Shown here piece by piece: positions 11,652 through 59,837 of a DNA stretch of 64,000 nucleotides. Within the stretch, counting starts at the first letter, position 1, and every line of letters starts with the position of its first letter. Where the stretch lies: positions 17,580,484 through 17,644,483 of the forward strand of contig CM059579.1 in assembly GCA_030386875.1 (NCBI GenBank), written 5' to 3'. Source of the DNA: Morinoia aosen. Lineage: Eukaryota > Arthropoda > Malacostraca > Amphipoda > Talitridae. The notes below the pieces were generated by a model. That model searched no databases. It was not told the origin of the DNA and saw only the letters and a list, made by a program, of their open reading frames with translations. Made by a program: the position numbers and the translations under genes.

Positions 11652-12394
11652 CGAGGCATGTCTAAAAAGTATCCGACCTTTGGCCAAAAATATTATTTCG
11701 AATACCTGACGGAGTTGGGACCCTAATCCCCTTCAAAGTAGGCCCTTGTGCTTGCAAACACTTAGCTCACCGATCCTTCCACTGCTGCATGGAAACACCT
11801 CTGGAAGTCTTCTTTTGGAATTGTGTTCAGCTCCGTCGTCGCGTTTACTGTTCGACTGTGTTACTCCGTCGATGCTGACTGTTTTCTCTAATGTCCATGG
11901 AATTGTGAGTCACGAATACGCTCCAGAAAGACAAACAGTGAAAAAGGAGGGCTATCAAGATGTTCTCCGGCGACTCCGTGACGCAGTTCGGCGTCAAAGA
12001 CCTGACATGTGGACGGCGAACAACTGGCACTTGCATCATGACAACGCCCCCGCACGTTCACCTCAATTGATCTACACTTTCTTCGCCAAACATGGAATTA
12101 CGGCCGTTCGCCAACCTCCCTACTCTCCAGACCTGGCTCCTTGAGACTTCTGGTTGTTTCCAAAATTGAAGACGCCACTGAAAGGATCCCGTTTTGAGAG
12201 TAGAGACGAGATAATGTGGAATGCGATGACAGAGCTGAGCACCATTCCCAAAGAAGACTTCCAGAGGTGTTTCCAAGGGCTAAGTGTGTGCAAGCACAAG
12301 GGGCCTACTTTGAAGGGGATGAGGGTCCCAACTCCGTCAGGTATTCGAAATATTATTTCTGGCCAAAGGTCGAATACTTTTTAGACAGGCCTCG
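11652..12394 (+). mobile_element. fold-back mariner derivative, non-autonomous
   Basis: Ends are inverted copies of CGAGGCNTGTCTAAAAAGT. A TA dinucleotide precedes the left end (11650-11651), as expected for mariner; the right flank reads TTTGTA, so the right target duplication is lost or altered. The inverted homology is not limited to short termini. From 11652 to about 11850 the sequence matches the reverse complement of about 12195-12394, including the part encoding the transposase C-terminus. Only the catalytic-to-C-terminal part of the transposase remains between the arms. The 5' end of a mariner has therefore been replaced by an inverted copy of its 3' end. At 743 bp it is about half the usual 1.3 kb. 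Confidence 0.85.
11876..12330 (+). pseudogene. mariner transposase, C-terminal fragment
   Basis: Role of the family: DDD/DD34D cut-and-paste transposase acting on mariner terminal repeats at TA sites. Seen here: a VFSNVHGIVSHEY segment where the family has its first catalytic aspartate (replaced by N), then APERQTV, then WHLHHDNAPAR with the second aspartate. Next comes PPYSPDLAP, followed by DFWLFPKLK with the third, at D34D spacing. A TGA codon sits directly before that third aspartate (12142-12144), and the N-terminal helix-turn-helix half is absent. The tail up to the GPTLKG region is readable after the stop. The gene cannot make an active enzyme. Confidence 0.88.
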
Positions 12395-27562: not shown

Positions 27563-27878
27563 TTTTCAAAATGTATCTCCTCCTACAGTTTTTGTGCTAC
27601 AGTGATGATTTTAGTGTCATTATATGCGGAAATACTTTTAGATTATAAAAACTAACTTTGCATTCTCCAAACTTTAGTTTGAAGTTGAAAAAATCGAAAA
27701 ATTCCAAAAATGGTATTTTTTCGTAAAATTTCATATATTATGACGGCACAACTTTCGATCGAAAATGAATTTACAAACTGCCATTTACTTTTTAAAATGC
27801 CCACGTTTTTCCGCATGCAATGACACTAAAATCATTACTGTAGCTCGAAAACCGTAGGAGGAGATACATTTTGAAAAC
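27563..27878. mobile_element. MITE-like inverted repeat element
   Basis: Left arm about 27563-27637 contains CAAAATGTATCTCCTCCTAC and GATTTTAGTGTCATTATATG. The right arm, about 27800-27878, is its inverted copy (GACACTAAAATCATTACTGT, GTAGGAGGAGATACATTTTG). Arms are about 75 bp with roughly 85-90 percent identity by eye, and the interior is about 165 bp and AT-rich. Target-site duplication was not identified. A non-autonomous DNA transposon or fold-back duplication fits. Confidence 0.65.
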
Positions 27879-31252: not shown

Positions 31253-31349
31253 CTGAAATGATCGTCTCAATTCGTTAGAATTAGTGTTTGAGTGTCAAAT
31301 CTAAAAAAAATCAAAAACGTTGCTGAAAACCTTCTAAAAGCTTAATTTA

Positions 31350-31925
31350 ACAATGAATAAAAGAGCAAAGAAAATCGCTTTAATAGAAATCATATTTCTT
31401 TAAAAACGCTCGTCATTTATAGATATTGTTGCGCACGGTGAGCGTCTGAATACGTGGGTTCGACCATTCGAGCCCTGGATATTCGAGTGGCTGAGCATAC
31501 CGGTTGGAGTTTTCGAACTGAACAGTTACTCTCTTCCCCTCCCCAATCTGCTGTTCGCTTTCATGCAGAGAGTTGTGACCTTCCAGTTCGGCTAGACAAT
31601 TTTAAAATAATTTCTTCTACATTCGGTACAATTAACCTTCGCATTTCAGAATCCCTGTTCATTTTAAAAGATAAACCTACCTTGAACAATACGCTATCAG
31701 CCTTCCCTCTGCAATTAGTGTAGTCTCTGTCTTTCTTTTTTTTAATGTCCTATACTCCAATGATGAATATATTTTGAACTTGTTATAATTCGGTGCTTTT
31801 GTATTTTTTCAGATAGTTGAAAATGACAAAAAAAATTGGTCGAAACGTTCTTTTTTATTGAAATACTATTTAAAGAAATATGATTTCTATTAAAGCGATT
31901 TTTTTGCTCTTTTATTCATTGTTAG
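31350..31925 (+). mobile_element. Penelope-like retroelement, truncated, with inverted flanks
   Basis: A GIY-YIG endonuclease fragment (31440-31723) and its 3' region lie between inverted repeats of about 56 bp. The left repeat is 31350-31405 (AACAATGAATAAAAGAGCAA...) and the right is 31869-31925 (...TTGCTCTTTTATTCATTGTT); they differ by a few bases and one indel. Just inside the right arm comes GAAAATGACAAAAAAAATTGG then TCGAAACGTTC. Penelope-like elements are known for 5' truncation and for terminal repeats in either orientation. TA or TTA flanks both outer ends, which could also suit a DNA-transposon reading. The endonuclease makes Penelope-like the better call. Confidence 0.65.
31440..31723 (+). 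pseudogene. GIY-YIG endonuclease domain, Penelope-like, fragment
   Basis: In Penelope-like retroelements a GIY-YIG nuclease follows the reverse transcriptase and nicks target DNA. Seen: YVGSTIRALDIRVAEHTG, matching the second half of a GIY-YIG core with the arginine and the EH pair. Then come SAVRFHAESCDLP and the family's typical C-terminus, LRISESLFILKDKPTLN followed by SAFPLQLV and a TAG stop. The first half of the domain and the whole reverse transcriptase are missing, and an in-frame TGA sits at 31439-31441, so this is a 5'-truncated dead copy. Recognition is from remembered family patterns, not from a search. Confidence 0.7.
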
Positions 31926-52699: not shown

Positions 52700-54426
52700 A
52701 ATCTTCATCAAAGACACACGAACGGAGCTATCAAAGGGAAAATTTTAATTCGCTAGGTTACAAGATTTGGAAGACTTCCTCTACAACCAGCATAGACTTC
52801 CTCACTGTTAACGACCTTGCCTTGAATGTAGAATTCTAACAGCCAGTCAGGCTAGTAATTGATTTTGTGTTTGAGAAACTCAAAATGATTTAGATATTTC
52901 AGGCCCGGTGCGTGCGAGGTGGAAGTGATGAGTTCTTTGAAAAATACAGCATAGGTATTGGAAGCTAAACCACACTCTGAATATTTCAAAGACTTTACTT
53001 TAAAACTTCAGCAGCGTAGCGGTTAAGTAAATTTATGCACAGATCAAAGTATCGAAAATTCTCCCCATAACGGCGAATTAAAAAAAGCACATCCAAAACA
53101 TCCAACGTTATGAATAAGTTAACTCAGACCAACTATTGGATGGAACGCGCCAGCTACGAAAACTCGAGGCTTGAATAAGTAGAACAAGACAAAGCGCACT
53201 TCAGGGCTGCATGGCTGCGGTTATCTGGACTAGAAATGGAATATATGAATGTTTCATTAGAAACTCACGTAATTCACAGCTGTCCAAAAGCTGCGCTTCC
53301 AATGTGAGAAGTACATTATCATAAATAAATGATGGAAAGGTTTGCCCAAAAGCTTAAAAGTAGAACTTTTTCTATGCTTGTTTTTAAGAGAAGTTTCAAT
53401 ATCATGAATGCAAAATGTTAGAAATCACTTGATGATTCAGCGCAAAAGAGATTCTAGTTTTGTTTTCAAAGACTTAATACCCATGCAATAATTGCAGAAC
53501 AGCGACATTGACTTTTTCTCAATCTCGATCATTTTAAAGGCGATTTCATATTTTTCGACGAAGAGCAGTATGAAGGGTTTCTTTTGAGCTCAAAATGATG
53601 CTCAAAAGCAAATTTAACAACGTGACTTGCATTTTTATTACGGCTTCAGCTTCAAACTTTTCGCTATCCGTCGGAATCTGAACAGGTTGGAATTTATTTC
53701 GCGCAAATAGGATAGTACGGCGAAGAGTAAGTAGAGCTTGTGCGTGAAGCAGTGTGGCGTACAGTGATCAAGAAATTTTTTCGTACGAAAAATAAGGCAT
53801 TTCTCCCCAAAAGGTGAGTATAAAACTAGTTGTTTTGGGATCGAATCAATATTGGCTAGTCTGTTAATTTCATTCCAGTCAAAATGGTAATATTGCATCA
53901 CGACAGCAAGATGCTTGAGGAAAACCTCATGTTATCGGCGCGAAACTTGTGCTCGGTCTCAGGTTTCAATTCCAGCATGTCGACGACCTCCAAATTTAGT
54001 CTACATCTGAGAATAATTGGATTCAGGAAATATAATTCCGATTTTACCATGACCTACTGCGAGTCTTGACCTGAATCTGCTTGAAAATCTGTGGCAAAAA
54101 TTAAAAATTCAAATACATTGTCGGGTTGTAATAATTTTCAAGAATTTGAAGGTGTTTTTAGTATTTGAACATGTTCAATATCATTCCCAACGCAAATTCG
54201 TTAAACTCTTTTTGAAATACGTTGGTAAAAGCTTTGTGATAAGAGTTAGGCAAGTTAGGAGTTATAATGGCTATTAATATTGTTATTATGTTCTTCAGGC
54301 AAAATAATACGAATACTTCCTTCAATTTACGAGCACTTCTTCCTTGATATTTTTGTAACAGCAATGGAATTAAAAATGTGGTTAGTAGAAGCGACTTTCA
54401 ATTTCTCATGTCCTTCATTAGTGGCC
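52700..54426. other. no gene recognised
   Basis: Unique AT-rich sequence with nothing supported. Confidence 0.55.
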
Positions 54427-54832
54427 AAAGGTCATTGTCTTCCCCCTTTCAGCGTACAGTTCCTCTAGAGTTAGAAGTCTTGTCTCGTAAGTAAGAACGA
54501 AATCATTCCTACAGCCACGAACGTTCAATACTTTTGAATTTAAAATTCTCTGCCAGCGTAGTTTCAAGCCGCTATCAAGCCACTAACGAAGCCAGAAAGA
54601 AAAAGAAAGAAAAAACTTTGTACCATCTATATTGGAAATAAACTGTTTTCTTTCTTTTTCTTTCTGGCTTCGTTAGTGGCTTGATAGCGGCTTGAAACTA
54701 CGCTGGCAGAGAATTTTAAATTCAAAAGTATTGAACGTTCGTGGCTGTAGGAATGATTTCGTTCTTACTTACAAGACAAGACTTCTAACTCTAGAGGAAC
54801 TGTATGCAGAAAGGAGAAAGACAATGACCTTT
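54427..54832. repeat. near-perfect inverted repeat, 187-bp arms, 32-bp loop
   Basis: The left arm is 54427-54613 and the right arm 54646-54832, equal in length with no indels. Comparing base by base I count five mismatches, all in the outer 60 bp. The inner 127 bp (54487-54613 against 54646-54772) is a perfect reverse complement, including GCCAGAAAGAAAAAGAAAG. The loop (54614-54645) contains ACTTTGTACCATCTATATTG. No terminal motif or target duplication of a known transposon class is evident. A transcript across it would fold into a single long hairpin like the precursors of insect hairpin-derived siRNAs; that role is inference. The 68-codon frame starting at 54692 is a by-product. Confidence 0.97.
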
Positions 54833-55208
54833 GATTACGAGGTGTGCAGGACGCGAGGTGTGGCTGTGCTGTTCACTAGGCGAGGGGGGTGGGAATGAAT
54901 GAGAAGGATACTGTTTTCTAGCGCGGTGTTTGATGGAAGTGCTTAAGAATAAATAAATGAAAAAAAATATATAATCAATAAATGAATGAATAAAGTACTT
55001 AAAAGTTGACCATTCTTTAACCCAATCTTCAATGGCGTATGATAATCCACCGGAGGTTTCGCAAAAATAAACAAAACACTGATGAAAATTTATTTTACAA
55101 AAATTTTAAGACCATGAATACAGAATATTAAAAGAATTACTGCTCAAGAGGGCAGGATGAGGGGATAAATGCACTGAGGGCCCATGGAAGTGAGGTAAAG
55201 TGTAAATG
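54833..55208. other. no gene recognised
   Basis: An AATAAATAAATGAATG-type simple run (about 54940-55000), then a short lead-in of GAGG-rich sequence to the 40-bp array. Confidence 0.6.
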
Positions 55209-56675
55209 AACTGTGAGGCAGGGTACACCAGGACGTGAGGCGTTACAGGACTGTGAGGCAGGGTACACCAGGACGTGAGGCGTTACAGGACTGTGAGGCA
55301 GGGTACACCAGGACGTGAGGCGTTACAGGACTGTGAGGCAGGGGACACCAGGACGTGAGGCGTTACAGGACTGTGAGGCAGGGTACATCAGGACGTGAGG
55401 CGTTACAGGACTATGAGGCAGGGGACACCAGGACGTGAGGCGTTACAGGACTGTGAGGCAGGGTACACCAGGACGTGAGGCGTTACAGGACTGTGAGGCA
55501 GGGTACACCAGGACGTGAGGCGTTACAGGACTGTGAGGCAGGGTACACCAGGACGTGAGGCGTTACAGGACTGTGAGGCAGGGTACACCAGGACGTGAGG
55601 CGTTACAGGACTGTGAGGCAGGGTACACCAGGACGTGAGGCGTTACAGGACTGTGAGGCAGGGTACACCAGGACGTGAGGCGTTACAGGACTGTGAGGCA
55701 GGGTACACCAGGACGTGAGGCGTTACAGGACTGTGAGGCAGGGTACACCAGGACGTGAGGCGTTACAGGACTGTGAGGCAGGGGACACCAGGACGTGAGG
55801 CGTTACAGGACTGTGAGGCAGGGTACACCAGGACGTGAGGCGTTACAGGACTGTGAGGCAGGGTACACCAGGACGTGAGGCGTTACAGGACTGTGAGGCA
55901 GGGTACACCAGGACGTGAGGCGTTACAGGACTGTGAGGCAGGGTACACCAGGATGTGAGGCGTTACAGGACTGTGAGGCAGGGGACACCAAGACGTGAGG
56001 CGTTACAGGACTGTGAGGCAGGGGACACCAGGACGTGAGGTGTTACAGGACTGTGAGGCAGGGGACACCAGGACGTGAGGCGTTACAGGACTGTGAGGCA
56101 GGGGACACCAGGACGTGAGGCATTACAGGACTGTGAGGCAGGGGACACCAGGACGTGAGGCGTTACAGGACTGTGTGGCAGGGTACACCAGGACGTGAGG
56201 CGTTACAGGACTGTGAGGCAGGGGACACCAGGACGTGAGGCGTTACAGGACTGTGAGGCAAGGGACACCAGGACGTGAGGCGTTACAGGACTATGAGGCA
56301 GGGGACACCAGGACGTGAGGCGTTACAGGACTATGAGGCAGGGGACACCAGGACGTGAGGCGTTACAGGACTATGAGGCAGGGGACACCAGGACGTGAGG
56401 CGTTACAGGACTGTGAGGCAGGGGACACCAGGACGTGAGGCGTTACAGGACTGTGAGGCAGGGGACACCAGGACGTGAGGCGTTACAGGACTATGAGGCA
56501 GGGTACACCAGGACGTGAGGCGTTACAGGACTGTGAGGCAGGGGACACCAGGACGTGAGGCGTTACAGGACTATGAGGCAGGGGACACCAGGACGTGAGG
56601 CGTTACAGGACTATGAGGCAGGGGACACCAGGACGTGAGGCGTTACAGGACTATGAGGCAGGGTACACCAGGATG
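55209..56675. repeat. 40-bp tandem array (about 36.7 copies)
   Basis: Exact 40-bp units read GGACTGTGAGGCAGGGTACA then CCAGGACGTGAGGCGTTACA, with no indels at all. Two polymorphic sites are zoned. GGGTACA predominates in the first 20 units and GGGGACA in the last 17 or so, while CTATGAGG instead of CTGTGAGG occurs once early and in most of the last ten units. This pattern is expected from local unequal exchange. Stops occur in the unit; there is no coding potential. Confidence 0.98.
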
Positions 56676-58551: not shown

Positions 58552-59837
58552 GTGGGCTTCAAAAAGTTCGTGGAAAATGGACTTAACTGAAAATGATATG
58601 AAAAGAATATGATGTCAATGCACCAGAACGTTGCTATACCAACGTGTTATAACGTGTTTCACATGAACCCTTAAATGAATGTTGCAACGCGGTGTCGCCA
58701 TTTGCAAGGCAGCAACTGTTCAAGCAATATGGCATCTGCCAAATCGAGGCCAGGACACACATCAAATTCATGGTGAGGCCTGGATGGAAAAACAGCAAAA
58801 TCATTGACTCTCGGGAACCAGTTTATGGCGACAGTGCCCCACTGAAATTAACAACCTACAAATGGATGAGTCGTTTCAGAAGCGGAAGAAATGAGACTGA
58901 AGATGATCCCCGCAGCGGCAGGCCATGCATATCAGTTTGTGTGGAAAACATTGATTCTGTTCTTGACCTCATTGAAAAGGATAGGCGAATGACCACCGAA
59001 TGAGTAGCAGACACACTCAACATCTCCGTGGGTTCTGCACACACACAATTCTGGTGGACAGTTTGGGACTGAGCAAGCTCTCCGCTCGATGGGTTCATAG
59101 GCTGTTGCGCCCAGATCAGCAGGAATCAAGGGCAGATTTTTCTATGGAAATTTTGAACAACTGGGATGAGAAACCTATACTTCATCTGCAGCGAATTGTG
59201 ACAGGCTCTACCAGTACGATCCCGAGGACAAAACTCAATCGAAGCAGCTAGTGGCTGCCCAGGTGTGGAAGTGGGCCAGTCAAAGCAAAATATGAGCTTT
59301 CAAGAGGAATGGTTATGGTCACTGTCTTCTGGGGTACAGAGGGGATATTGTTAGTTGTTTGCCTCGGGAACAAGAAAACAATTACAGCTGTTTATTATAA
59401 AGAGATTTTGAGAAAATTGTCTAAGAAAATCGCAGAAAAACGCCCTTGGAAGCTGCATCGGTGCGTCTTCTTTCACCACGTCAATGCACCCGCTCACGGC
59501 GCTGGCAGACAAGAGCTGTGCTACTCCAATTTCGATGGGAAATCATTCGACATCCACCTTATAACCCCGACTTAGCCCCATCCAACTTCTTTTTATTTCC
59601 AAACCTGAAAAAGTCATTGAAAGGTACCCAGTTTTCATCAATTGAAGCAGTAAGAAGAGCTGTCGTGACTTGGTTCAAATTGCATGACTCAGTTCTACGC
59701 AGATGGACTTAAAGGCTGGTATCAGCGTTTGCAGAAACGTATTGACCTAGATGGAGCATATGTTGATAAATAAACATTATGACTTTGACGGTTTTCTCAA
59801 ACTGTCCTGTTTCCAGGAACTTTTTGAAGCCCCCTCG
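58552..59837 (+). mobile_element. mariner transposon, nearly full length, inactive
   Basis: Length 1286 bp matches intact mariners. Inverted ends share GGGCTTCAAAAAGTTC, and TA flanks both sides (58550-58551 and 59838-59839). The left end has lost a few of the outermost bases relative to the right (CGAGGGGGCTTC reading inward). It holds one decayed transposase gene. It is a different lineage from the mariner at 11.65 kb, whose ends are CGAGGCNTGTC. Confidence 0.93.
58692..59773 (+). pseudogene. mariner transposase (D34D type), broken
   Basis: Recognisable in order are an N-terminal helix-turn-helix region (ARTHIKFMVRPGWKNS, TTYKWMSRFRSGR, EDDPRSGRP), the linker (VLDLIEKDRRMTTE), and a core with MVMVTVFWGTEGILLV, where the first catalytic aspartate is replaced by G. 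HHVNAPAH follows, with V for the second aspartate. Then come YNPDLAPS and NFFLFPNLKKSLKG, with N for the third. The C-terminus ends in VDK and TAA at 59771-59773. There is an in-frame TGA at 59001-59003, further stops near 59070-59150, and at least two frameshifts (around 59500 and 59700). The true start codon is not clear. All three catalytic positions are altered, so the copy is dead. Confidence 0.92.

What the first reader, a model, noticed from the sequence alone, without database searches (positions are those of the whole stretch)
54427..54832. Nearly perfect 187-bp inverted repeat with a 32-bp loop
The arms are equal in length, without indels, and differ at only five positions by my count, all in the outer third. 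The inner 127 bp pair perfectly. Either the duplication is very recent, or the pairing is maintained by gene conversion or by selection on the RNA. It is not tandem-array DNA and shows no transposon ends I know. A transcript would form one long hairpin, as in insect hairpin-siRNA loci. Perfect palindromes of this size are also unstable and hard to assemble.
Basis: partly seen in the sequence, partly recalled or inferred. Interest (0 to 1): 0.78.

Follow-up and report, generated by a model that had tools for sequence, protein, structure and literature searches.

The report
Hairpin born from aborted LINE insertion
A near-perfect 188-base inverted repeat is real; it most likely arose in one event when a tiny piece of a jumping gene was inserted and its DNA copy folded back and copied the neighbouring host DNA, and a second locus in the same genome has the same layout.

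Summary
The inverted repeat is real: arms 54426-54613 and 54646-54833, 188 nt, 5 mismatches, inner 127 nt perfect, loop 32 nt. Queries from the arm and from both flanks find only themselves in the 1.99-Gb genome, so it is not a MITE. The loop plus the first 19 nt of the right arm (54616-54664) is the 3' end of a multi-copy LINE, cut down to 49 nt; the left arm begins with the reverse complement of that LINE tail and continues as an inverted copy of 169 bp of the 3' flank. The apex is the LINE's 5' truncation point. A 12-of-13 direct repeat lies at the outer edge and just after the tail. Best model: first-strand cDNA snapped back, primed on itself and was extended through its tail into flanking DNA. 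A genome-wide pattern search for the inverted tail beside the LINE end hit four loci; one other, L055, is a second long hairpin with unrelated arms. In the sequence scanned these two are the only inverted repeats of 80 nt or more at 85% or more with loops up to 300 nt. Function as a hairpin-siRNA locus has no support. New variant of known LINE insertion errors.

The parts
54413..54425 (+). 5' copy of a 13-bp direct repeat (CTTCATTAGTGGC), candidate target-site duplication, abutting the left arm
   Evidence: matches 54668-54680 at 12 of 13; 9 of 274,269 random anchor pairs do as well
54426..54613 (-). Left arm: inverted copy of the right arm (3' flank plus LINE tail), inferred to be the new copy
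   Evidence: query 54420-54592 finds only itself and its partner
54595..54613 (-). Inner end of left arm: reverse complement of the LINE tail (GAAAGAAAAAGAAAGAAAA)
   Evidence: in 39 of 39 rows of other copies the element ends in a forward T/C-rich tail followed by other sequence
54614..54645 (+). 32-nt loop; 54616-54645 is LINE 3' end sequence
54616..54664 (+). 5'-truncated LINE remnant (49 nt): CTTTGTACCATCTATATTGGAAATAAACTG + tail TTTTCTTTCTTTTTCTTTC
   Evidence: a copy of the family carries RVT_1
54646..54833 (+). Right arm: LINE tail (54646-54664) followed by native 3' flank (54665-54833, 169 bp), inferred to be the original
54668..54680 (+). 3' copy of the 13-bp direct repeat (CTTCGTTAGTGGC), 3 nt after the LINE tail

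Best explanation
It is an ultra-short LINE insertion whose first-strand cDNA snapped back. Steps: (1) the LINE nicked the bottom strand and primed reverse transcription of its tail, giving cDNA attached to the 3' flank [inferred; standard target-primed reverse transcription]; (2) after about 49 nt the cDNA 3' end folded back onto its own strand and was extended as a primer [inferred from the reverse-complement tail at the apex]; (3) extension ran through the cDNA tail and on into 169 nt of flanking genomic DNA [inferred from the left arm being tail plus flank, inverted]; (4) the new end was joined to the upstream side and the other strand filled in, leaving a 13-bp direct repeat [repeat shown, step inferred]. 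The result is a 188-bp hairpin made in one step. Nothing indicates that it does a job now.
For: Loop and inner right arm match the 3' end of a LINE with reverse transcriptase; 39 of 39 rows of other copies show the tail forward and then other sequence (some rows share a flank and are duplicates). The left arm carries the tail reversed and is fused to the LINE's 5' truncation point. LINE sequence upstream of the truncation is absent next to the hairpin: 54150-54425 finds only itself in the genome. Direct repeat 12 of 13 across the insert; 9 of 274,269 random anchor pairs do as well. Independent replicate: the pattern 'inverted tail, 10-40 nt, LINE end' gave 9 matches at 4 distinct loci, reversed control 1 match; one of the other three, L055, is again a long hairpin (arms 159 and 157 nt, 153 of 157 pairs match plus a 2-nt gap) with an arm unlike the window's and a LINE end at its apex. 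Of 320,484 bases scanned, with overlaps (about 256,000 distinct), these two are the only inverted repeats of 80 nt or more at 85% or more, ungapped, with loops up to 300 nt. Human LINE-1 ORF2p extends RNA hairpins, copies DNA and switches templates in vitro (PMC10830420, passages).
Against: The second case L055 shows no target-site duplication. Of 14 ordinary copies checked (L031's 5' end lay outside the view) at best one, L043, has a candidate of 9 bp, part of it in the tail and not at the estimated LINE start; so the 13-bp repeat is unusual for this family, or chance, and its length was chosen after seeing it. The scan is LINE-centred. Snap-back of the long kind is rare (0 of 63 places not chosen by the inverted-tail search). 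Copying the flank needs strand displacement or resection that is not shown. By eye the priming homology is only about 2 nt, with two extra T. The clustered outer mismatches are not predicted. Whether L055's own flanks and arm are single-copy did not complete. No empty allele could be examined.
Confidence: 0.75

Rival explanations
1. Later replication error: an old 5'-truncated LINE end was already there, and a replication fork switched templates and copied the nascent strand back, inserting the inverted copy.
For: Template switching can create perfect stems in one event and fix existing ones (PMC8794818, abstract and start of introduction); inverted duplications are the commonest inversion class outside mobile-element events in a human set, 277 events with median 284 bp (PMC12350158, passages). 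Would also fit the perfect inner stem.
Against: The switch would have had to fall at the LINE's 5' truncation point, or delete the rest of the LINE, in the window and again at L055 (L055's left flank was not searched for LINE sequence).
Confidence: 0.12
2. Sister-chromatid version: the cDNA was joined to the same site on the sister chromatid in inverted orientation (L1-mediated fold-back), then resolved locally.
For: L1-bridged fold-back inversions between sister chromatids are described in tumours (PMC7058536, passages).
Against: The left arm contains the newly made tail itself, which an uninserted sister would lack; a double insertion would be needed (inference). Here the arms are under 200 bp, not megabases.
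Confidence: 0.07
3. A functional hairpin-RNA (endo-siRNA) locus kept perfect by selection.
For: Would fold at -338.8 kcal/mol if transcribed; inner 127 bp perfect.
Against: The arm query has no second genomic match, whereas fly hpRNAs typically show substantial complementarity to one or a few targets, from a single siRNA to extended regions (PMC10317233, passages); no expression data; no Rfam match.
Confidence: 0.03
4. Assembly or library artefact (fold-back read).
For: Palindromes are prone to it; no reads were available.
Against: Arms differ at 5 sites; a LINE end sits at the apex and a 12-of-13 direct repeat spans the insert; same layout at a second locus.
Confidence: 0.03

Closest known systems
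5'-truncated LINE insertions by target-primed reverse transcription
   Same: LINE 3' end with its tail next to the 3' flank; 5' truncation; candidate TSD
   Different: Only 49 nt of LINE, and an inverted copy of the 3' flank at the 5' end
Twin priming (5' inversion of L1; named in PMC12350158, passages)
   Same: Inverted sequence joined at an internal point of one insertion
   Different: The inverted part is tail plus host flank, not upstream LINE sequence; L049 and L054, with inverted tail only, could be twin or dual priming
L1-mediated fold-back inversion in tumours (PMC7058536, passages)
   Same: LINE at the apex of an inverted duplication of flanking DNA
   Different: Chromosome-arm scale and between chromatids there; under 200 bp and interstitial here
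LINE template jumps giving chimeric retrocopies (PMC2104539, search listing only)
   Same: Reverse transcriptase leaves its template during insertion
   Different: There it jumps to other RNAs; here the copied sequence is the tail and host flank, inverted
Replication template-switch hairpins (PMC8794818, abstract)
   Same: One event gives a near-perfect stem
   Different: Here the apex coincides with a LINE insertion end
Drosophila hpRNA loci (PMC10317233, passages)
   Same: Long inverted repeat that could make a dsRNA hairpin
   Different: No second match for the arm, no expression data

Membership tests
LINE (non-LTR) insertion | 3' end and tail shared with a multi-copy family encoding reverse transcriptase | tested here: met
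   39 other places (40 of 758 candidates scored); exact 23-mer of the tail at 133 places, the window's included (first 100 listed); RVT_1 E 1.9e-14 upstream in copy L012. LINE clade not determined
LINE (non-LTR) insertion | Target-site duplication | tested here: inconclusive
   12 of 13 here; none found at L055; at best 1 of 14 ordinary copies checked
Snap-back inverted duplication of flank | Apex at LINE 5' end, arm = tail plus 3' flank | tested here: met
   second case L055
Snap-back inverted duplication of flank | One event, not insertion followed by a later rearrangement | not testable with these tools
   needs an empty or intermediate allele
MITE | Multiple dispersed copies | tested here: not met
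   Arm query: 1 candidate place genome-wide, itself and its partner
hpRNA / endo-siRNA locus | Target with arm homology | tested here: not met
   No second match to the arm query; matches as short as one siRNA not excluded
hpRNA / endo-siRNA locus | Dicer-dependent 21-22-nt RNAs | not testable with these tools
   no small-RNA data

The most novel reading that the evidence does not exclude
LINE insertion recurrently makes long hairpins in one step: very short first-strand cDNAs self-prime and copy roughly 140-170 bp of flanking host DNA, seeding new long hairpin loci made of host sequence (raw material for hpRNA or miRNA genes) across the genome.
Probability: 0.35. Interest if true: 0.7.

Novelty: new variant of a known kind. 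Interest (0 to 1): 0.45.

Why it matters
Where long perfect hairpins come from is an open question for hpRNA and miRNA gene birth. Two loci with unrelated arms, in which a stub of LINE tail sits at the apex of a host-DNA hairpin, point to retrotransposition as a one-step source, and give a simple sequence signature (inverted tail next to a LINE end) that can be counted in any genome. It also bears on how second-strand synthesis can go wrong.

Tried and rejected
MITE or other TIR element: rejected, one place only. Tandem repeat: the arms overlap none of the arrays listed. Known structured RNA: no Rfam hit at gathering score. The bacterial promoter/terminator scan is not meaningful for this genome.

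Further snap-back cases: gap 10-40 gave 9 matches at 4 distinct loci, reversed control 1: the window, L055 (long hairpin), and L049 and L054, which have the inverted tail without flank copy. Gap 41-71 gave 5 places, control 0; judged by eye from the matched letters none is clear, and only one of the five was fetched (L088): a short inverted-tail-like stretch and no flank copy. L005 has an inverted flank of 85 aligned pairs, 73 matching, plus 10 gap columns, around its LINE; set aside, as it could be an older case or a LINE inside a palindromic element. An inverted-repeat scan of the 39 copies found inverted repeats in 3 (L017, L027, L040), none spanning the LINE end. In one search, 76 of 78 records were aligned (L036 and L047 dropped for lack of the core motif); 9 are records of the 4 pattern loci and 4 repeat earlier places, leaving 63 places not chosen by the inverted-tail search (a few share flanks by duplication, for example L021 and L022); none has a long hairpin within 600 nt of the LINE end, apart from L005's diverged one.

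Not answered: whether the L055 arm is single-copy; a laxer tail pattern; an organism test with PF00379. Literature: ten searches (one search listed none) showed no paper that I recognised, from titles and abstract starts, as describing this exact structure; that is not proof of absence. Script errors; argument errors.

Full report
Observation. The inverted repeat exists as described: arms 54426-54613 and 54646-54833 (188 nt each), loop 32 nt, five mismatches, all in the outer 61 nt, inner 127 nt perfect. Among inverted repeats of the window with arms within 4 kb it is by far the strongest. As RNA it would fold at -338.8 kcal/mol, z -40.

Copy number. In the window's own genome (1,990,973,590 bases, 29 contigs) a 173-nt query from the left arm (54420-54592) finds one candidate place, itself and its partner. 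The left flank 54150-54425 and the right flank 54834-55180 each find only themselves. The tool warns that simple repeats and very common words are skipped, so short shared words are not excluded. A dispersed MITE family is ruled out.

The apex is a LINE end. The full hairpin query gave 41 matches, two of them the locus itself on either strand; the other 39 lie within query positions 174-253, mostly 191-239, that is the loop and the start of the right arm (40 of 758 first-look candidates were scored). Upstream of that end, copy L012 has an open frame with a reverse transcriptase match (RVT_1, E 1.9e-14). I read those 39 places (loci): in 39 of 39 rows the element ends in a variable T/C-rich tail followed by other sequence. 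Several rows share a flank (L004 and L023, L016 and L018, L021 and L022, L024-L026), so they are not 39 independent insertions. An exact 23-mer of the tail occurs at 133 places in the genome, the window's included. In the window the LINE part is 54616-54664, 49 nt. The clade of the LINE was not determined.

Anatomy. Right arm = tail (54646-54664) + 169 bp of flank. Left arm = the same, inverted: its inner end 54595-54613 is the reverse complement of the tail. The LINE's upstream sequence is not to the left of the hairpin, since the 276 bp there find only themselves. So the apex is the LINE's 5' truncation point. The left flank ends in CTTCATTAGTGGC (54413-54425), which matches CTTCGTTAGTGGC (54668-54680), 3 nt after the tail, at 12 of 13. 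With the left end fixed and 0-8 nt of slack on the right, 9 of 274,269 random anchor pairs of the window (tandem arrays left out) do as well; a looser test, arrays included, gave 33 of 20,000.

Mechanism. In target-primed reverse transcription the cDNA 3' end lies at the LINE's 5' truncation point. If that end folds back and primes on its own strand, extension copies first the tail and then the flank, giving this order. That the new tail itself is in the left arm argues for copying of the same molecule (inference). ORF2p of human LINE-1 extends RNA hairpins, copies DNA and switches templates in vitro, and a staggered second cut of about 12-18 bp is part of the proposed insertion model (PMC10830420, passages); this is a different LINE, so the comparison is by analogy. 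Which polymerase made the flank part is unknown.

Replication of the pattern. A pattern asking only for GAAAGAAA, 10-40 nt, TTGGAAATAAACTG found 9 matches at 4 distinct loci; the reversed control gave 1. Besides the window: L055 (C13) is a second long hairpin, arms 1362-1520 and 1542-1698, three mismatches in the flank part, one mismatch and a 2-nt gap in the tail (153 of 157 pairs match), with an arm unlike the window's (best local scores 16 and 13; RNA fold z -33). Whether its arm and flanks are single-copy was asked but not answered. L049 and L054 have the inverted tail without flank copy, which dual or twin priming could give as well. A wider gap (41-71 nt) gave 5 places, control 0, with no clear case by eye; one of the five was fetched.

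Background. A scan of 320,484 bases (window and fetched loci; eleven records that overlap the window or repeat L049 left out; other overlaps remain, so about 256,000 distinct) for ungapped inverted repeats of at least 80 nt and 85% with loops up to 300 nt found two: the window's and L055's. With longer spacing there are others, for example the 87-nt ends of a mariner-like element at 11659-12387. The sample is LINE-centred. L055 was chosen by its inverted tail, not by its arms, so its long arms are an independent result.

Against. L055 shows no target-site duplication. Of 14 ordinary copies checked (L031's 5' end lay outside the view) at best L043 has one: 9 bp, partly in the tail, some 20 nt from the estimated LINE start. 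The 13-bp repeat is therefore supporting, not decisive. The long kind is rare: 0 of 63 places not chosen by the inverted-tail search, apart from a diverged inverted flank at L005 (73 of 85 pairs, 10 gap columns). The exact-pattern search finds only short-loop, well-kept cases, so its count is a lower bound.

Mismatch clustering. All five mismatches lie in the outer 61 nt (chance 0.003) and four within 13 nt (0.004, tests framed afterwards). Possible causes: error near the end of the snap-back synthesis, or later repair of the inner stem by template switching (PMC8794818, abstract). L055 has mismatches in its inner part, so this is not a rule. Unexplained.

Function. No evidence for a hairpin-RNA gene. 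Fly hpRNAs typically show substantial complementarity to one or a few targets, from a single siRNA to extended regions (PMC10317233, passages); this arm has no second match of that length. Small-RNA data would decide.

Novelty. Short inverted duplications are a common variant class in people (277 events outside mobile-element events, median 284 bp; PMC12350158, passages), and LINE-bridged fold-back inversions are known in tumours (PMC7058536, passages). Ten literature searches (listings only except the papers named) showed no description of LINE-end snap-back copying of flanking DNA into a short hairpin; subscription papers are mostly outside that library. I rate it a new variant of a known kind.

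Noticed in passing
window 55210-56673: A 40-bp minisatellite, 36.6 copies at 97% match, starts about 375 bp right of the hairpin.
   Followed up: no
window 11659-12387: Mariner-like element about 729 bp long with 87-bp ends at 95% and a transposase fragment (Transposase_1 E 6.7e-06).
   Followed up: partly
window 58653-59712: Pieces of a mariner-type transposase in more than one frame (Transposase_1 E 2.2e-13 at 59252-59575).
   Followed up: partly
window 31348-31404 and 31869-31924; 27563-27621 and 27819-27877: Two smaller inverted-repeat pairs that look like MITE ends.
   Followed up: no
window about 54061-54105: Looks like a decayed Tc1-type transposase end (read by eye as DLNLLENLWQKLK; motif recalled, no search).
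   Followed up: no
L005, reverse complement, 891-985 and 1621-1705: Inverted flank around a LINE copy, 73 of 85 aligned pairs matching plus 10 gap columns: older snap-back, or LINE in a palindromic element.
   Followed up: partly
L002, L004, L006, L007: These LINE copies carry a short palindrome close to GATGGTACTTTTGTACCATC next to the 3' end, near where the window's copy is truncated.
   Followed up: no
L011 2-2224: A 741-residue open frame that looks like an LTR-retrotransposon pol gene (recalled motif, no search).
   Followed up: no
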